Under the pieces are notes generated by a model. That model was not told the DNA's origin. It ran no database searches and worked only from the letters and a program-made list of their open reading frames with translations. 64,000 bases of DNA from Iocasia fonsfrigidae (GTDB lineage: Bacteria > Bacillota > Halanaerobiia > Halanaerobiales > DTU029), in the NCBI RefSeq assembly GCF_017751145.1, contig NZ_CP046640.1, positions 1,468,137 to 1,532,136 of the forward strand, read 5' to 3'. A program made the translations under genes and the position numbers. Within the stretch, counting starts at the first letter, position 1; every line of letters starts with the position of its first letter. This document shows positions 16,970 to 34,783 of this stretch, piece after piece.

Positions 16970-17289
16970 GAGTTAAAATAAGGCCCAAAAAGTGAAAGGC
17001 ATAAAAAATCTCCTATATTTTTAGAATTGGAAGTAGTATATTCCAAAATATAAATATAGATGGTATGTTAATATTTTTCTCTGGAGTAGAGGGCTTTTTA
17101 GGATTGTTTTTAATGTTATATTTCACAGTGGCTTTTGTAAGAAAGATTTTAAGATAATAAAATATTAAAACTAAAAAAGCGCACATTGTCTAACAAATCA
17201 GGAGTATTTTCGTAATTGCAAGAAAGCAAAATTATAGAATTAAAAGATAGAAATTATATGATTTTTGAGTTTAAATTAGAATATTAATA

Positions 17290-17326
17290 AAAAAAGCCAT
17301 GATGATTATAATCATCATGGCTTTTC
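17290..17326. repeat. Bidirectional hairpin of the AAGCCATGATGA family (copy 2)
   Basis: AAAAGCCATGATGAT / ATCATCATGGCTTTT is a perfect stem with A and T tails. It lies in the gene-free stretch 16970-17672. Just beyond it (about 17375-17400) the minus strand reads TLRNKKP-stop, matching the HigA-like tail next to copy 1, so the similarity extends past the hairpin. Near 17191-17229 is one copy of the dispersed TAACAAATCAGGAG motif. Confidence 0.75.
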
Positions 17327-17672
17327 TTTAACTATTTTAATATTCGGATGATCTTTTTTACTTCTTCAGGGTCAAGGTTTTTTGTTTCTTAGAGTAAATG
17401 CAGTAAATCTTCTCGGTCTGCTCAAAATAAGATAGCAAATTTTTAAGTTCAGAATTATTCTGTTATTTTTTTGTTTTATTGATTATAAATTATGCAGAGC
17501 TAGAGGGTTATATTACGGTAGCAAGATATAATAATTAATCATAATAAGTCCTATGTCAATAATTATTATAAACTACTACAAATTACCCAAAATTACAAAA
17601 TCCAATGCTGCAAATAACAATATATGTTATAATAACATAATAAGGAAAATAATAAAAGGAGTTATTAAGAAG

Positions 17673-18800
17673 ATGATAGAAAAGAAATCTATTAAAAGAA
17701 CATTGATATTACTTATATCACTAACCTTACTTATTACTTTAGCTGCCTGTAATGGGAGTGAAACCACTTTAAATCAGGATAAGGAGAAAAATGAACAGAT
17801 AAGTAAAGCTAGACTGGCGAGAGAGGAAGCTGAGAGGGCTGAAAAAAGAGGACAGGAAGAATTTGTCCTGACAAAAGAGATATATAAAGAAGGTGATGGT
17901 AGTTTAAAGGGGACTGTTGAATATGATTATGATAGTCATGGAAATCTATTATCAGTAAAATACATTGGTAGTGATGATAGCATAGTAGGTAATATTGAAT
18001 ATAAGTATAATGACAGGGATTTGGTTATAAAAAGAGAGGTAAAAAAACATCCAGAGTATTTTGCAAATAAATGGATAGGAAACTCCAGTGCCTGGGGTAT
18101 GGTTAAAGAGGTACAGGAATTCCCCCGTTATCCAAATGGTATAGCAAAATATACCTATAATGAAGATGACCAGCTTATTGAATATCTTGAAAAGGACAAG
18201 GAAACAGGAGAAAAATTACGGATTGTAAAAAAGGAATATTATCCAAGTGGTAATCTGAAATATGAATATGAATGGAGAAATTCTGGTTATGAAGGTGAGT
18301 TTTTCTATGAGGATGTATATATCAGGTATGCCTATGAGTGGACAAAAAGTACAGAAAAAAGGAATAATAAGGTGACTATATCTGAACATGTTTTTGATGA
18401 GAATGGTAATATTTTGTCAGATATTTCGATTACCAGAAATTCAGAGGGAGTTATAGTTGATAGATATAATTCAACAAGTGAGTATAATGAACAGGGTAAC
18501 ATTATAAGAGCTGTTGGTAATATTATTACTTTTGAATATGAGTATAATCATAAAGGTAATTTAATAAGAGAAATAACAAAAGATAGCACAGGAAATATTG
18601 ATGATATATATGAATATGAATATGATGATAGGGGGAATGTGATTAAACTAAAATATAAAAATCCGAAATTATCAAGTTGCAGTGAAATTACTTATGATGA
18701 ATATAATAATAAGATAAAAGCTATCAGGAAGAGGAGAGATGGTAGCATTAGAGGGATTGAAGAGTATGAATATATGAAAGTAGGTGAATTAAGTGATTGA
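17673..18800 (+). CDS. Lipoprotein with YD/RHS-like repeats
   Basis: This 375-residue secreted lipoprotein has a basic start, a hydrophobic core and the lipobox LLITLAAC, whose Cys would be lipidated. After a charged alpha-helical stretch (residues ~35-70) come about eight tyrosine-rich repeats of the form Y-x-Y-D-x-x-G-N-L-x-x, for example YDYDSHGNLLS, YEYNHKGNLIR and YEYDDRGNVIK. YD repeats build the beta-sheet shells of RHS and teneurin proteins, but this protein is far smaller and has no RHS core or toxin tip. I prefer ATG 17673 over the earlier in-frame ATG because it begins the signal peptide and has AAAGGAG upstream. It overlaps the next gene by 8 bp, so they form an operon. Confidence 0.75.
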   Translation: MIEKKSIKRTLILLISLTLLITLAACNGSETTLNQDKEKNEQISKARLAREEAERAEKRGQEEFVLTKEIYKEGDGSLKGTVEYDYDSHGNLLSVKYIGSDDSIVGNIEYKYNDRDLVIKREVKKHPEYFANKWIGNSSAWGMVKEVQEFPRYPNGIAKYTYNEDDQLIEYLEKDKETGEKLRIVKKEYYPSGNLKYEYEWRNSGYEGEFFYEDVYIRYAYEWTKSTEKRNNKVTISEHVFDENGNILSDISITRNSEGVIVDRYNSTSEYNEQGNIIRAVGNIITFEYEYNHKGNLIREITKDSTGNIDDIYEYEYDDRGNVIKLKYKNPKLSSCSEITYDEYNNKIKAIRKRRDGSIRGIEEYEYMKVGELSD

Positions 18801-20238
18801 TGAGAAAGTAGTATCTAGTAAAAGGGTAGTATATGAAAGAAATGAGAATGAAGATGATGGAAATCCAAATGACCCAGGGGCATTTTATTTAGAGGATGAG
18901 GAAAGTGGTGAAAGAATTAAACTGATTGATTTTGATTGGGTAGAACGGGCTGGAGTTATAAAAAATAAAGAGATTGCCAAAGCAACGGCTGTCAGATACA
19001 CAACCCTCTTCCGCCTGACAGATGAACAGGTGAGGTTTGATGCTACGGCAGGTGCCCTGGAGATAGTGGGTAGGGGGATGACTTATGCTGAGGCTTATAG
19101 TAATACTGCTGGTGCACTGGGGGAAAATATAGCCAATATCAGTGTAATGGCTTTAAGCTCTTATACCAGTTCATCTTTAGACTATATGTATCATGATTAT
19201 TTTGATGATGAGACTGATGAAAGTGAAGAGCCTCATCCCAGTAATAAGGTTGATTTAAATGAAGAGAGGGTTCAAAAGGCTGCTGATAACCTATACCTCC
19301 AGACTTTATTATTAATAGGTGGGGAGTTTTTTAACCAGGCAGAACAGTATGCCCAGGAAACCCTGGTAAAGAAGTATTCCAGTCCTGATGCCATTGCTAA
19401 TCTGATCAAGGAGATGGGAGCAGATGGTTTAAAAAGTACTAAAGCAATTAAAACCCTTATGTCAGAATATTTTTGTAACTGGGGTCCGGCAATCATTAAA
19501 CTGGCCCCTAAGGTAAAACACGGTGGTTTTGCAACAGCAGGTGAATATCTGGCAGCCCTTAATAGAGAGCTTATGTTAAATCGAATATCAGGTAGGGTCA
19601 ATATGATCCTTCTCTGTTTAGGGGTAACCCTGATGAAGGCAGGGCATCCCCTGTCAGTGATGCTCGGTGCTGCTGTTGTAGTTTCTGCTCAACCGGTCTC
19701 TATGGGGGTAAGAAAGGCAGCAGAGCATAAACTAAAGGAGAAAGAGAATAATAGTGCTCAAATAGATGAAACTAAACAGACAGATATCTGGGATGAAGTC
19801 CTGGACACTGTTTTTGAGGAATTCAAAAAGCAGTTTAACTTAGTAGAATTATTTAATGGGGTTAGTCAGATGTATCTCTTATGTGACCTTCATACAGATG
19901 ACCCCAGGATAGCCGAATTTGAGATTGATGCCCCTGGTGGGATTGAAGGTTTTGAAATACTCTGGAGGGGCAATGTCAAAAGCCTTGCCAATTTAGATTT
20001 TAAGTGTTTAGCTAAACATGAAGGTATAGGGGATGTAAGTGAGTTTACCAATAAGATTAAAGGCTTATCAGTTTGTTATGGTACTGTGGAAAGTATTGGT
20101 GGAATGATGAACCGTAAATTTGAAAAAAAGGGAAACGAAGCGATTAACCAGCTGGACGATGATTTTGTAGCCTTTTTTGACCATAGGGGGATCAAGACCG
20201 CAGATGGACATCCTTTAAAAACCCTGAGTTTAATCTAA
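18793..20238 (+). CDS. Unrecognised 481-residue protein
   Basis: I do not recognise a family. It starts at GTG 18793 inside the end of the lipoprotein gene, with AGGTGA 5 nt upstream. The N-terminal 70 residues are acidic, then comes a mostly helical body with DATAGALEIVGRGMTYAEAY and a more hydrophobic central region (about residues 265-305) that could be one or two buried or membrane helices. There is no signal peptide. A lysine/glutamate-rich linker (~residues 310-330) separates a C-terminal ~150-residue part. The coding looks genuine: a long, clean frame, a ribosome site, and tight coupling to the lipoprotein. Confidence 0.65.
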   Translation: MIDEKVVSSKRVVYERNENEDDGNPNDPGAFYLEDEESGERIKLIDFDWVERAGVIKNKEIAKATAVRYTTLFRLTDEQVRFDATAGALEIVGRGMTYAEAYSNTAGALGENIANISVMALSSYTSSSLDYMYHDYFDDETDESEEPHPSNKVDLNEERVQKAADNLYLQTLLLIGGEFFNQAEQYAQETLVKKYSSPDAIANLIKEMGADGLKSTKAIKTLMSEYFCNWGPAIIKLAPKVKHGGFATAGEYLAALNRELMLNRISGRVNMILLCLGVTLMKAGHPLSVMLGAAVVVSAQPVSMGVRKAAEHKLKEKENNSAQIDETKQTDIWDEVLDTVFEEFKKQFNLVELFNGVSQMYLLCDLHTDDPRIAEFEIDAPGGIEGFEILWRGNVKSLANLDFKCLAKHEGIGDVSEFTNKIKGLSVCYGTVESIGGMMNRKFEKKGNEAINQLDDDFVAFFDHRGIKTADGHPLKTLSLI

Positions 20239-20276
20239 CCCCGAGATTAATACATAAAAAGAAAACAAAGGATATA

Positions 20277-22094
20277 ATGGACAAACATAATTTCTTATTT
20301 TTACCAGGATATACTATCCCTGAAGTAAAAGACCATTTGAAAGTAATTAATAAACACTTCCCTGAAAGGTATCTAAAGTTCTTGTTGGAACAGGGGATTA
20401 ATATTGGTATTGATACCAGGGGTCGGGTACCTTTTCATCAGGTTCAGCATATCAGTATTATTGACAGACAGGCCGATAAATTTGGTCTAGGCCTGTGTTT
20501 TGAAGATAATAAAGGCTATGAAGAAATTTTGGAGTTAAGTCATAATGAGTTCTTTAAAGAAGAAGGCCTTTACGGGAATTTATTTAGTAAAAAAGAGGGT
20601 GATGGTAAGGGTGTCAACTATGACTATCTAATCTTTAAAGACGACCCTGATGTACTCTTACCCCATGTTTTTTTCAAGAAAAATAATGACAGACTATATG
20701 GGAGTTTAGGAAAAAACAAAGAAGAATTAAGCCCTCCAGAAGAGCCCTATCAATTTACAGCGGGCTTTGGTAAAAAGCAAAACTATAAAAAATCCAATGG
20801 TATGGGGGTAATTAAAATAAATGGCCATACTATTGGTGAAAATATTAGGTTTTTGAGAAAAAGCAGGTATCAAGGACAGTTCAAAGAAGAATATGAAGAA
20901 AATATCTACAAAGAAGGAACAGAGCAGCTAATGTTAAAACTCAGCTATAGTTTTACCCCTCACGGTAAACTAGATTTTAATTCCCTATTTGACCTCTATG
21001 ATAAAACAGAACTAATCATCAAATATGGTATCCCTGGAGAAGGACCAGCAATAGAAAACATACTGGAGATAGATGATTTTCAGAATGGGGATTATGGGAT
21101 AGAATTACCCAGGTATCATCTAATCTCAGGGACATTATATGCCAAACAGAAAAAGGAGTATTCTAATAATGAAATAATAAGCTGTGCGGGAAATGATATC
21201 AAGATAAACATCAACTCTGGAAAGGCCTATAATTATAAATTAAATCAGGAAGATGGAGAAGAGCTTTATAATCAAGCTGATAGGATTATTATTGGGGACA
21301 AGCCTATTGGCAGCGGGATTAATCTACATAGAGAAACAGAAGAAGGGATTATAGAGTATAGGGATGATGATCAAGTAAAATATGAGTTTTCTATCAAAAA
21401 AGACAAACTATTAATTGATTTACAAAACCACCCCCATATTAAAGAAATATACCGTGAAGAATTATCAAAAAATATTAGGGATAGTAAAATACTTGATGCA
21501 ATATTAATAGAGAATTTTAAGAACGGTGATTATGGCTTGCACTTACCCTATGAACATATGGGAGAAAATTTTACGTTGCTGGTAGGGAGCAAAGCCCGGG
21601 AAGAGATAGAAATAAATCAACCCCATGATTATTATATATATTCCCAGAAAAGTTACTGTAATAATGAAGACTGTAAATTAAAAAAGCTCTGTCAGGAAAG
21701 GGGTAAAAATAGTCTTGGAAGTGAAGCCTGTTTCTGTAAACAGTATATATTTAATGAACTGGGATATAAAGCAATTAATGGAAAAGGTGACCTTTATATA
21801 GACGGCCTCAGGCTGGGTGAGATGAATATTGAGAAACTTACTTATATTGGTGGTCTGATCTCTGGATATACATTTAAAAAGGGTTTATATGAACTTGAGT
21901 GTAGATTTGAGCAAAAACTTAATAATGATGATAAGGTTGATGAACTGCTTATTAGTTATAAGGGGGGTATTAGGGGGAAAAATACAGGTGAATGGAATCA
22001 TATCTTGATTAAAGGCTTTCAGAATGGTGATTATAATATCAATCTACCAGAGGTGGTTGTTTCATATCTACCTGGGAGTAATTATATTGGGTAA
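20277..22094 (+). CDS. Unrecognised 605-residue protein with three internal modules
   Basis: I do not recognise a family. It is third in the operon, 38 bp after the previous stop, with AAAGG before the ATG. Residues 1 to ~150 form one domain that contains DTRGRVPFHQVQH. The rest has three modules, each opening with a strand like IKINGHTIGE, IIIGDKPIGSG or LYIDGLRLGE and closing with FQNGDYGIELP, FKNGDYGLHLP or FQNGDYNINLP. Between modules 2 and 3 a cysteine-rich patch (CNNEDCKLKKLC then ACFCKQ) could bind zinc. There is no signal peptide. A truncated relative lies at 34436-34534, so the family has more than one member in this genome. Confidence 0.7.
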   Translation: MDKHNFLFLPGYTIPEVKDHLKVINKHFPERYLKFLLEQGINIGIDTRGRVPFHQVQHISIIDRQADKFGLGLCFEDNKGYEEILELSHNEFFKEEGLYGNLFSKKEGDGKGVNYDYLIFKDDPDVLLPHVFFKKNNDRLYGSLGKNKEELSPPEEPYQFTAGFGKKQNYKKSNGMGVIKINGHTIGENIRFLRKSRYQGQFKEEYEENIYKEGTEQLMLKLSYSFTPHGKLDFNSLFDLYDKTELIIKYGIPGEGPAIENILEIDDFQNGDYGIELPRYHLISGTLYAKQKKEYSNNEIISCAGNDIKININSGKAYNYKLNQEDGEELYNQADRIIIGDKPIGSGINLHRETEEGIIEYRDDDQVKYEFSIKKDKLLIDLQNHPHIKEIYREELSKNIRDSKILDAILIENFKNGDYGLHLPYEHMGENFTLLVGSKAREEIEINQPHDYYIYSQKSYCNNEDCKLKKLCQERGKNSLGSEACFCKQYIFNELGYKAINGKGDLYIDGLRLGEMNIEKLTYIGGLISGYTFKKGLYELECRFEQKLNNDDKVDELLISYKGGIRGKNTGEWNHILIKGFQNGDYNINLPEVVVSYLPGSNYIG

Positions 22095-22148
22095 AAAAGG
22101 ATTTCTATAGTTAAGACATTGTCAAAAACTAATACAGGAATAATTAGG

Positions 22149-22181
22149 AAAAAGTCTGCTATTTATAGACAGGCTTTTTTT
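22149..22181 (+). terminator. Terminator of the three-gene unit
   Basis: AAAAAGTCTG pairs with CAGGCTTTTT (one G.T pair), followed by more T. The same structure at 34589-34621 has AAAAAGCCTG instead, a compensating C that keeps pairing and argues that the RNA fold is selected. Confidence 0.85.
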
Positions 22182-22361
22182 GAATTTAAGCGACTTTTTA
22201 AACTAATGTTTTGCAATTTAAGGATAAGATAATACAGACTTATGACTTATTCTGAAAGACCTATCATAGTTTTAATTTTCTACTACTGGATTCCACTATC
22301 TTTTAAAATGAACAACAAGGTTTGCTGTTGTTAGATTTAGTCGTGTAGGAACAGTTTTTAA

Positions 22362-34435: not shown

Positions 34436-34534
34436 CCTTTATTGGAGATAGATGATTTTCAAAATGCTGATTATAATATAAATCTACCAGAGGTGGTTGT
34501 TTCATATCCACCTGGGAGTAATTATACTGGGTAA
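34436..34534 (+). pseudogene. Tail of a second copy of the three-module protein
   Basis: Thirty-two codons reading LEIDDFQNADYNINLP then EVVVSYPPGSNYTG and a stop match the end of the gene at 20277-22094. The first part is closer to its module 1 (ILEIDDFQNGDYG) and the second to module 3, so the lost gene was a diverged paralogue. There is no start and nothing of the gene remains upstream. Similarity continues past the stop into the terminator and about 60 nt beyond, to about 34690. The rest of 34382-34783 holds no gene. Confidence 0.85.
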
Positions 34535-34588
34535 AAAAGGATTTCTATCGTTAAGATATTGTCAAAAACTAATACAGTAATAATTAGG

Positions 34589-34621
34589 AAAAAGCCTGTT
34601 ATTTATAGACAGGCTTTTTTT
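34589..34621 (+). terminator. Terminator copied with the gene tail
   Basis: AAAAAGCCTG / CAGGCTTTTT with a T tail is the counterpart of 22149-22181, with a fully paired stem. Confidence 0.85.
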
Positions 34622-34783
34622 GGAATTTAAGCAACTTTTAAAACCAGTGTTTTGCAATTCAGAGATGTAATAATATAGACTTATATACTATGTCGATAGA
34701 GGATTTTTTGGATATTTATTGAATTATTATATATATAAAGAATATACTAGCGGACTTTTTACTTAATCTAGGAGGCTAAATAA

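What the first reader, a model, noticed from the sequence alone, without database searches (positions are those of the whole stretch)
17673..22094. Unrecognised three-gene unit: YD-repeat lipoprotein, 481-residue protein, 605-residue three-module protein
The first two genes overlap by 8 bp, the third follows after 38 bp, and one terminator closes the unit. The lipoprotein has RHS-like YD repeats but no RHS core or toxin tip. The 605-residue protein has three modules that each end in F-x-N-G-D-Y-x-I/L-x-L-P, plus a cysteine-rich patch. I cannot place the second and third proteins in any family. A surface-anchored binding protein with two cytoplasmic or exported partners, perhaps in contact-dependent competition or envelope biology, is one guess.
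Basis: partly seen in the sequence, partly recalled or inferred. Interest (0 to 1): 0.62.

Follow-up and report, generated by a model that had tools for sequence, protein, structure and literature searches.

The report
Decayed cargo cassette of injection machine
The three genes are the worn-out remains of a single cargo cassette (a membrane-anchored, probably protective lipoprotein plus one large protein that a deletion has split in two) belonging to a phage-tail-like injection machine whose main gene cluster sits elsewhere in the same chromosome and appears not to have been described in this group of bacteria.

Summary
Genes 2 and 3 are halves of one ancestral gene. The same chromosome has an intact copy (B): YD lipoprotein, then one 1207-residue ORF (protein 2, two LysM, protein 3), then a DUF4280 (PAAR-like spike-tip) gene. 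In the window a 385-bp deletion between ~11-bp direct repeats removed both LysM domains and broke the frame, and the DUF4280 gene is gone. A third copy (C) lies inside a contractile-injection-type locus: Hcp/TssD-like tube, VgrG-like spike, DUF4280, a 725-residue putative sheath, Hsp70/DnaJ-like, FHA, PP2C and kinase genes. Among 59 class members the sheath candidate occurs in 7 of the 8 DUF4280 carriers and nowhere else; among 398 Bacillota, 12 of 13 sheath-bearing genomes have DUF4280. The NGDY motif recurs in DUF4280 proteins and lipase-headed effectors. Protein-2-type heads always follow a YD lipoprotein (17/17), lipase heads follow other lipoproteins. Best reading: orphan, decayed effector/immunity cargo of a T6SS-like system. 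The machine link is well supported; sheath, toxin and immunity roles are inferred. The machine may be the "unknown phage-like translocation system" suggested for Firmicutes in 2021 (PMC8651086).

The parts
17673..18800 (+). YD-repeat lipoprotein (375 codons incl. stop); putative immunity protein of the cassette
   Evidence: Lipobox Cys26; PF05593 E=3e-9; homologue directly upstream of every protein-2-type head examined
18793..20238 (+). Protein 2: N-terminal head (putative toxin) of an originally larger effector, cut off by the deletion; its last residues are out-of-frame sequence
   Evidence: 90-91% identical to residues 1-467 of the 1207-aa ORF of copy B
19603..19710 (+). Conserved hydrophobic stretch of protein 2 (residues 271-306)
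   Evidence: Hydropathy of family members
20195..20196 (+). Junction of a 385-bp deletion between ~11-bp direct repeats (both LysM domains lost, frame broken)
   Evidence: DNA alignment with copy B, L011:9893-10277
20196..20276 (+). Remainder of the linker, still readable in the frame of gene 3
   Evidence: Frame translations
20277..22094 (+). Protein 3: three NGDY modules, the C-terminal delivery/adaptor half of the same ancestral gene
   Evidence: 71-73% to copy B residues 620-1206, 43-44% to copy C
21078..21110 (+). NGDY motif 1 (FQNGDYGIELP)
   Evidence: Translation
21516..21548 (+). NGDY motif 2 (FKNGDYGLHLP)
   Evidence: Translation
22017..22049 (+). NGDY motif 3 (FQNGDYNINLP)
   Evidence: Translation
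21657..21737 (+). Cysteine-rich patch (C461-C487), only partly conserved in paralogues
   Evidence: Alignment A1
22147..22181 (+). Intrinsic terminator
   Evidence: MFE -13.2 kcal/mol, z -3.9
34440..34684 (+). Remnant of another copy: hybrid of NGDY module 1 start and module 3 end plus the terminator region
   Evidence: 90% identity over 228 bp to 22017-22243 and 89% over 35 bp to 21061-21095

Best explanation
The window holds a dispersed, decayed copy of a cargo cassette of a T6SS-like contractile injection system (CIS). In intact form the cassette is: lipoprotein, then one effector (variable head, LysM, NGDY modules), then a DUF4280 PAAR-like spike tip, sometimes all fused. Proposed working: NGDY modules and PAAR-like domain attach the effector to the VgrG-like spike; contraction injects it; the head (protein-2 type, with a hydrophobic stretch, or lipase type) damages the target's membrane; the matching lipoprotein, exported and anchored in the producer's envelope, blocks the head in kin. 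In this copy a 385-bp deletion removed the LysM linker and split the effector, and the spike-tip gene was lost, so it probably no longer delivers anything; the lipoprotein may still protect. Shown: homology, the deletion, the linkage, tube/spike/PAAR-like homologies, head-lipoprotein pairing. Inferred: that the 725-aa protein is the sheath, that the head is toxic, that the lipoprotein is immunity, that NGDY modules are the adaptor.
For: Three copies in one chromosome; B has genes 2+3 fused with two LysM and a DUF4280 gene next. 385-bp frame-breaking deletion. Copy C lies in a locus with a VgrG-like protein (TIGR01646 1.5e-8; profile hits All3320 4e-5 and Pvc8 0.004 in PDB), an Hcp/TssD-like tube (12 of 15 members match PF17642, best 3e-5; only PDB hit is Hcp1, E 0.05) and DUF4280. 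A relative's VgrG-like protein carries Phage_base_V above cut-off. Same gene order in further class members and much of the core across Bacillota. DUF4280 and sheath candidate co-occur: 7 of 8 vs 0 of 51 (p 2e-8) and 12/19 vs 1/379 (p 2e-17), not corrected for phylogeny. The NGDY profile also matches N-termini of DUF4280 proteins and lipase effectors. 17/17 protein-2-type heads follow a YD lipoprotein; lipase heads follow other lipoproteins; both types form arrays of lipoprotein + truncated head. Lipase_3 above cut-off in two effectors. DUF4280 = PAAR-like in IglG (PMC5014421). Protein-2 family found only in CIS-bearing genomes.
Against: The 725-aa sheath candidate matches no sheath family (VipB, Phage_sheath_1, PHROGs, PDB) and its AF2 model failed (pLDDT 29). 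No T6SS membrane-complex IcmF match in this genome. No enzyme signature or confident fold for protein 2 or 3. Between copies A and B the head is more alike (91%) than the lipoprotein (66%), probably through gene conversion, so co-divergence of a toxin/immunity pair is not visible. dN/dS below 1 and a plausible ribosome site leave open that the halves are still made.
Confidence: 0.66

Rival explanations
1. Structural rather than toxic: protein 2-LysM-protein 3-DUF4280 is a spike-tip or envelope-docking part of the machine and the YD lipoprotein anchors or guides it in the producer's envelope.
For: Protein-2 type is present in the main locus of several class members; LysM binds peptidoglycan; LysM is a shell domain of eCIS loci (PMC8213781); no catalytic motif found.
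Against: Several copies per genome, arrays of truncated heads each with its own lipoprotein, dispersal away from the machine, and swapping of the head for a lipase on the same NGDY modules fit cargo better; the protein-2 family is absent from CIS-bearing genomes outside the class.
Confidence: 0.22
2. A working split effector: proteins 2 and 3 are still made from one transcript and act together, with a DUF4280 protein supplied in trans by copy B or C.
For: Both ORFs open, dN/dS below 1, ribosome-site-like AAAGGA before gene 3; copy C is also split between the two halves.
Against: The split coincides exactly with a deletion at direct repeats that removes the linker, and the end of protein 2 is out-of-frame sequence. 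Low dN/dS also reflects the intact partner copy and gene conversion.
Confidence: 0.1
3. A surface-anchored binding or adhesion unit unrelated to injection.
For: Lipoprotein with YD repeats; no secretion gene next to it in the window.
Against: Conserved linkage to DUF4280 and, in copy C and relatives, to tube, spike and the rest of the locus.
Confidence: 0.02

Closest known systems
T6SS effector-immunity cassettes on VgrG/PAAR spikes (e.g. Tle phospholipase with Tli lipoprotein immunity, PMC9860674)
   Same: Effector fused or linked to spike parts, lipase heads in some members, lipoprotein gene beside the effector, orphan copies and truncated arrays
   Different: Adaptor is the NGDY module plus DUF4280; the machine lacks recognisable TssC and IcmF; the protein-2 head is of no known family; the lipoprotein has YD repeats
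DUF4280 / PAAR_H proteins, IglG of the Francisella T6SS (PMC5014421)
   Same: DUF4280 domain as presumed spike cap
   Different: Here with an N-terminal NGDY module and often fused to the effector; the host machine is another lineage
Unknown phage-like translocation system of Firmicutes suggested from Phage_GPD genes next to PAAR_H2 (PMC8651086)
   Same: Bacillota, VgrG/GPD-like gene near DUF4280, no recognised T6SS or eCIS genes nearby
   Different: Here tube, sheath candidate, Hsp70/DnaJ-like, FHA, PP2C and kinase genes are assigned to it, with a cargo repertoire; that the two are the same system is my inference
RHS/YD-repeat toxins
   Same: YD repeats
   Different: Only the small lipoprotein has them; no RHS core or toxin tip

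Membership tests
Contractile injection systems (general) | Hcp-like tube protein | tested here: met
   12 of 15 family members match PF17642 TssD (best 3e-5; the window genome's member 5e-4, below the curated cut-off); only PDB hit Hcp1, E 0.05
Contractile injection systems (general) | VgrG/gp27-gp5-like spike | tested here: met
   TIGR01646 1.5e-8, Phage_GPD 7e-7; PDB All3320 4e-5, Pvc8 0.004; Phage_base_V above cut-off in a relative
Contractile injection systems (general) | Contractile sheath | tested here: inconclusive
   725-aa protein next to the tube gene, 69-85% conserved in the class, but no family match and AF2 model unusable
Contractile injection systems (general) | PAAR or PAAR-like tip | tested here: met
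   DUF4280 far above cut-off in copies B and C; absent from the window copy
Canonical T6SS | TssM/IcmF membrane complex | tested here: not met
   PF06744 no match in the own genome
Canonical T6SS | TssC (VipB) sheath | tested here: not met
   PF05943: only a sub-threshold hit elsewhere in the genome
Extracellular CIS / phage tail-like particles | Phage-type sheath (PF04984) | tested here: not met
   No match in the own genome
T6SS-type effector-immunity pair | Head type and neighbouring antidote candidate co-vary | tested here: met
   17/17 protein-2 heads with YD lipoprotein, lipase heads with other lipoproteins
T6SS-type effector-immunity pair | Head is toxic and neutralised by the partner | not testable with these tools
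   Needs expression assay
RHS polymorphic toxins | RHS core shell and variable C-terminal toxin | tested here: not met
   Only short YD repeats in a small lipoprotein

The most novel reading that the evidence does not exclude
An undescribed CIS lineage spread patchily through Bacillota (including two-membraned halophiles), with its own sheath family and an Hsp70/DnaJ/FHA/PP2C/kinase module, delivers a new membrane-attacking head (protein 2) by NGDY-DUF4280 adaptors, and a YD-repeat lipoprotein serves as its antidote, a new job for YD repeats. The window is a fossil cassette of it.
Probability: 0.45. Interest if true: 0.78.

Novelty: new variant of a known kind. Interest (0 to 1): 0.58.

Why it matters
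The window genes are a decayed copy, but they lead to a whole gene cluster. [quoted passage not shown] a 2016 survey reported T1SS and T5bSS for Halanaerobiales, and the passages found mention no T6SS there (PMC4793230). The locus found here supplies a parts list, a sheath candidate that no library names, and two cargo types with paired lipoproteins, so that question becomes directly testable.

Tried and rejected
Pfam, NCBIfam and PHROGs with proteins 2 and 3: only sub-threshold hits (tail chaperone, E+ motif), taken as chance. AF2 of the 725-aa sheath candidate with 7 close sequences: pLDDT 29, useless. AF2 of copy B (1200 aa, 18 sequences): mean pLDDT 59, parts of the NGDY regions about 75-86; Foldseek and VIA-align gave nothing above noise except LysM (Z 5.2, 30% identity); no fold is claimed or excluded. 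Sheath candidate vs phages and plasmids by tblastn: no match. Genome-contig scan: 4 loci only, used for names. Rfam around the unit: nothing. RHS-toxin and phage-chaperone readings rejected. Literature searches for CIS in Halanaerobi- found no paper.

Full report
WHAT IS THERE. The first is a lipoprotein with YD/RHS repeats; the third has three NGDY motifs; a good terminator follows. Pfam and NCBIfam place neither protein 2 nor protein 3.

GENES 2 AND 3 WERE ONE GENE. The own genome (3.93 Mb, one contig) has two more copies. Copy B (C1:1907330-1913091) is lipoprotein (66% identity), one 1207-codon ORF and a DUF4280 gene. The 1207-aa protein is protein 2 (91%), two LysM domains (PF01476 3e-21) and protein 3 (73%). 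Aligned as DNA, the window lacks 385 bp (L011:9893-10277) at 20195/20196, between two near-identical 11-bp direct repeats; 385 is not a multiple of three, so the frame breaks, and the rest of the linker can still be read in the frame of gene 3. The DUF4280 gene is absent: similarity to B ends near 22095. A second fossil lies at 34440-34684, a hybrid of NGDY module 1 and module 3 plus the terminator region, as recombination between modules would leave. Identity along A and B is mosaic (head core 85-100%, flanks 57-95%), which I read as gene conversion.

CONTEXT. Copy C (about C1:2506.5-2512.2 kb, minus strand) is inside a ~34-kb locus: 725-aa protein, 146-aa tube-like protein, lipoprotein/lipase-head arrays, a 2146-aa lipase-like protein ending in a VgrG-like domain, a VgrG-like protein, 426- and 229-aa proteins, an Hsp70-like protein, a 256-aa protein, DnaJ, two FHA proteins, PP2C, YD lipoprotein, protein 2 with LysM, protein 3, DUF4280, PP2C with TPR-like repeats, kinase. 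The DnaJ, FHA, PP2C, TPR and kinase names rest on my reading of the sequences, not on a profile search; the Hsp70 name on weak DnaK-model hits. The spike and tube assignments are supported by profiles; DUF4280 is the PAAR-like domain of IglG (PMC5014421). The same order is found, in whole or in the parts that are assembled, in six more genomes of the class. Contigs of matching length and hit give names to three carriers: a Halanaerobiaceae MAG (G002), Candidatus Frackibacter sp. WG13 (G038) and Halanaerobacter jeridensis (G056).

CO-OCCURRENCE. Among 59 genomes of the class, the DUF4280/NGDY protein is in 8 and the sheath candidate in 7 of those 8 and in no other (the eighth is a fragmented MAG). 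Among 398 Bacillota, the sheath candidate is in 13, DUF4280 in 19, both in 12 (Fisher 2e-17, not corrected for relatedness); several pairs lie within about 15 kb. Outside the class the tube, VgrG-like, 426, 229, Hsp70-like, 256, DnaJ, FHA and PP2C genes largely recur. The protein-2 family was found only in class members that carry the machine.

CARGO LOGIC. The NGDY profile from protein 3 also matches the N-terminal part of DUF4280 proteins and the C-terminal halves of lipase-headed proteins; Lipase_3 is above cut-off in L022 and L057. So NGDY modules are shared and heads change. Every one of 17 protein-2-type heads, full or truncated, directly follows a YD lipoprotein (in one case one fused to a head fragment); lipase heads follow other lipoproteins; both types occur as arrays of lipoprotein plus truncated head, and one ORF (L051:13269-15107) fuses a head fragment to a YD lipoprotein. 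This is the pattern of effector-immunity arrays. Lipoprotein immunity to a T6SS phospholipase has precedent in Tli3 (PMC9860674, abstract listed). The protein-2 family has a recurrent hydrophobic stretch, which makes membrane attack a guess, no more.

LIMITS. The sheath is inferred from its place next to the tube gene and its conservation; profile searches and AF2 did not confirm it. Toxicity and immunity are untested. Copy C is also split between protein 2 and protein 3, so a split form may sometimes be tolerated; for the window copy the deletion is plain.

VERDICT. The window unit is an orphan, broken cargo cassette of a T6SS-like injection system. It is not a canonical T6SS (no TssC or IcmF match) nor a phage-type eCIS (no Phage_sheath_1) by the tests run, though it works like them in outline. 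New variant of a known kind; the machine behind it is the more interesting object, and may be the Firmicutes system suggested in PMC8651086. A haloarchaeal CIS paper reports Bacillota as closest relatives of its system (PMC11566945); whether those are this lineage was not tested.

Noticed in passing
34440-34684: Remnant of a further cassette copy: hybrid of NGDY modules 1 and 3 with the terminator region.
   Followed up: yes
G000:C1:2503000-2537000 (L012, L013, L014): Undescribed-looking contractile-injection-type locus with 725-aa sheath candidate, Hcp-like tube, VgrG-like spike, Hsp70/DnaJ-like, FHA, PP2C and kinase genes.
   Followed up: partly
L013:8967-15407 and L073:1-7720: 2146-aa lipase-like protein ending in a VgrG-like domain; arrays of 3-4 lipoprotein genes each followed by a truncated lipase-head fragment.
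   Followed up: partly
L051:13269-15107: In-frame fusion ORF of a truncated protein-2 head with a YD lipoprotein.
   Followed up: no
L102, L103 (G299, G425): Compact divergent versions of the same locus with a ~1000-aa protein (weak Hsp70 match in L102) and a sheath candidate at 27-29% identity.
   Followed up: no
L077:15904-17751 (G056): In-frame stop in the sheath candidate of the Halanaerobacter jeridensis genome; several broken effector and DUF4280 copies there.
   Followed up: no
17289-17328: Long inverted repeat with T-tract between the MATE-type gene and the unit, probably a terminator.
   Followed up: no
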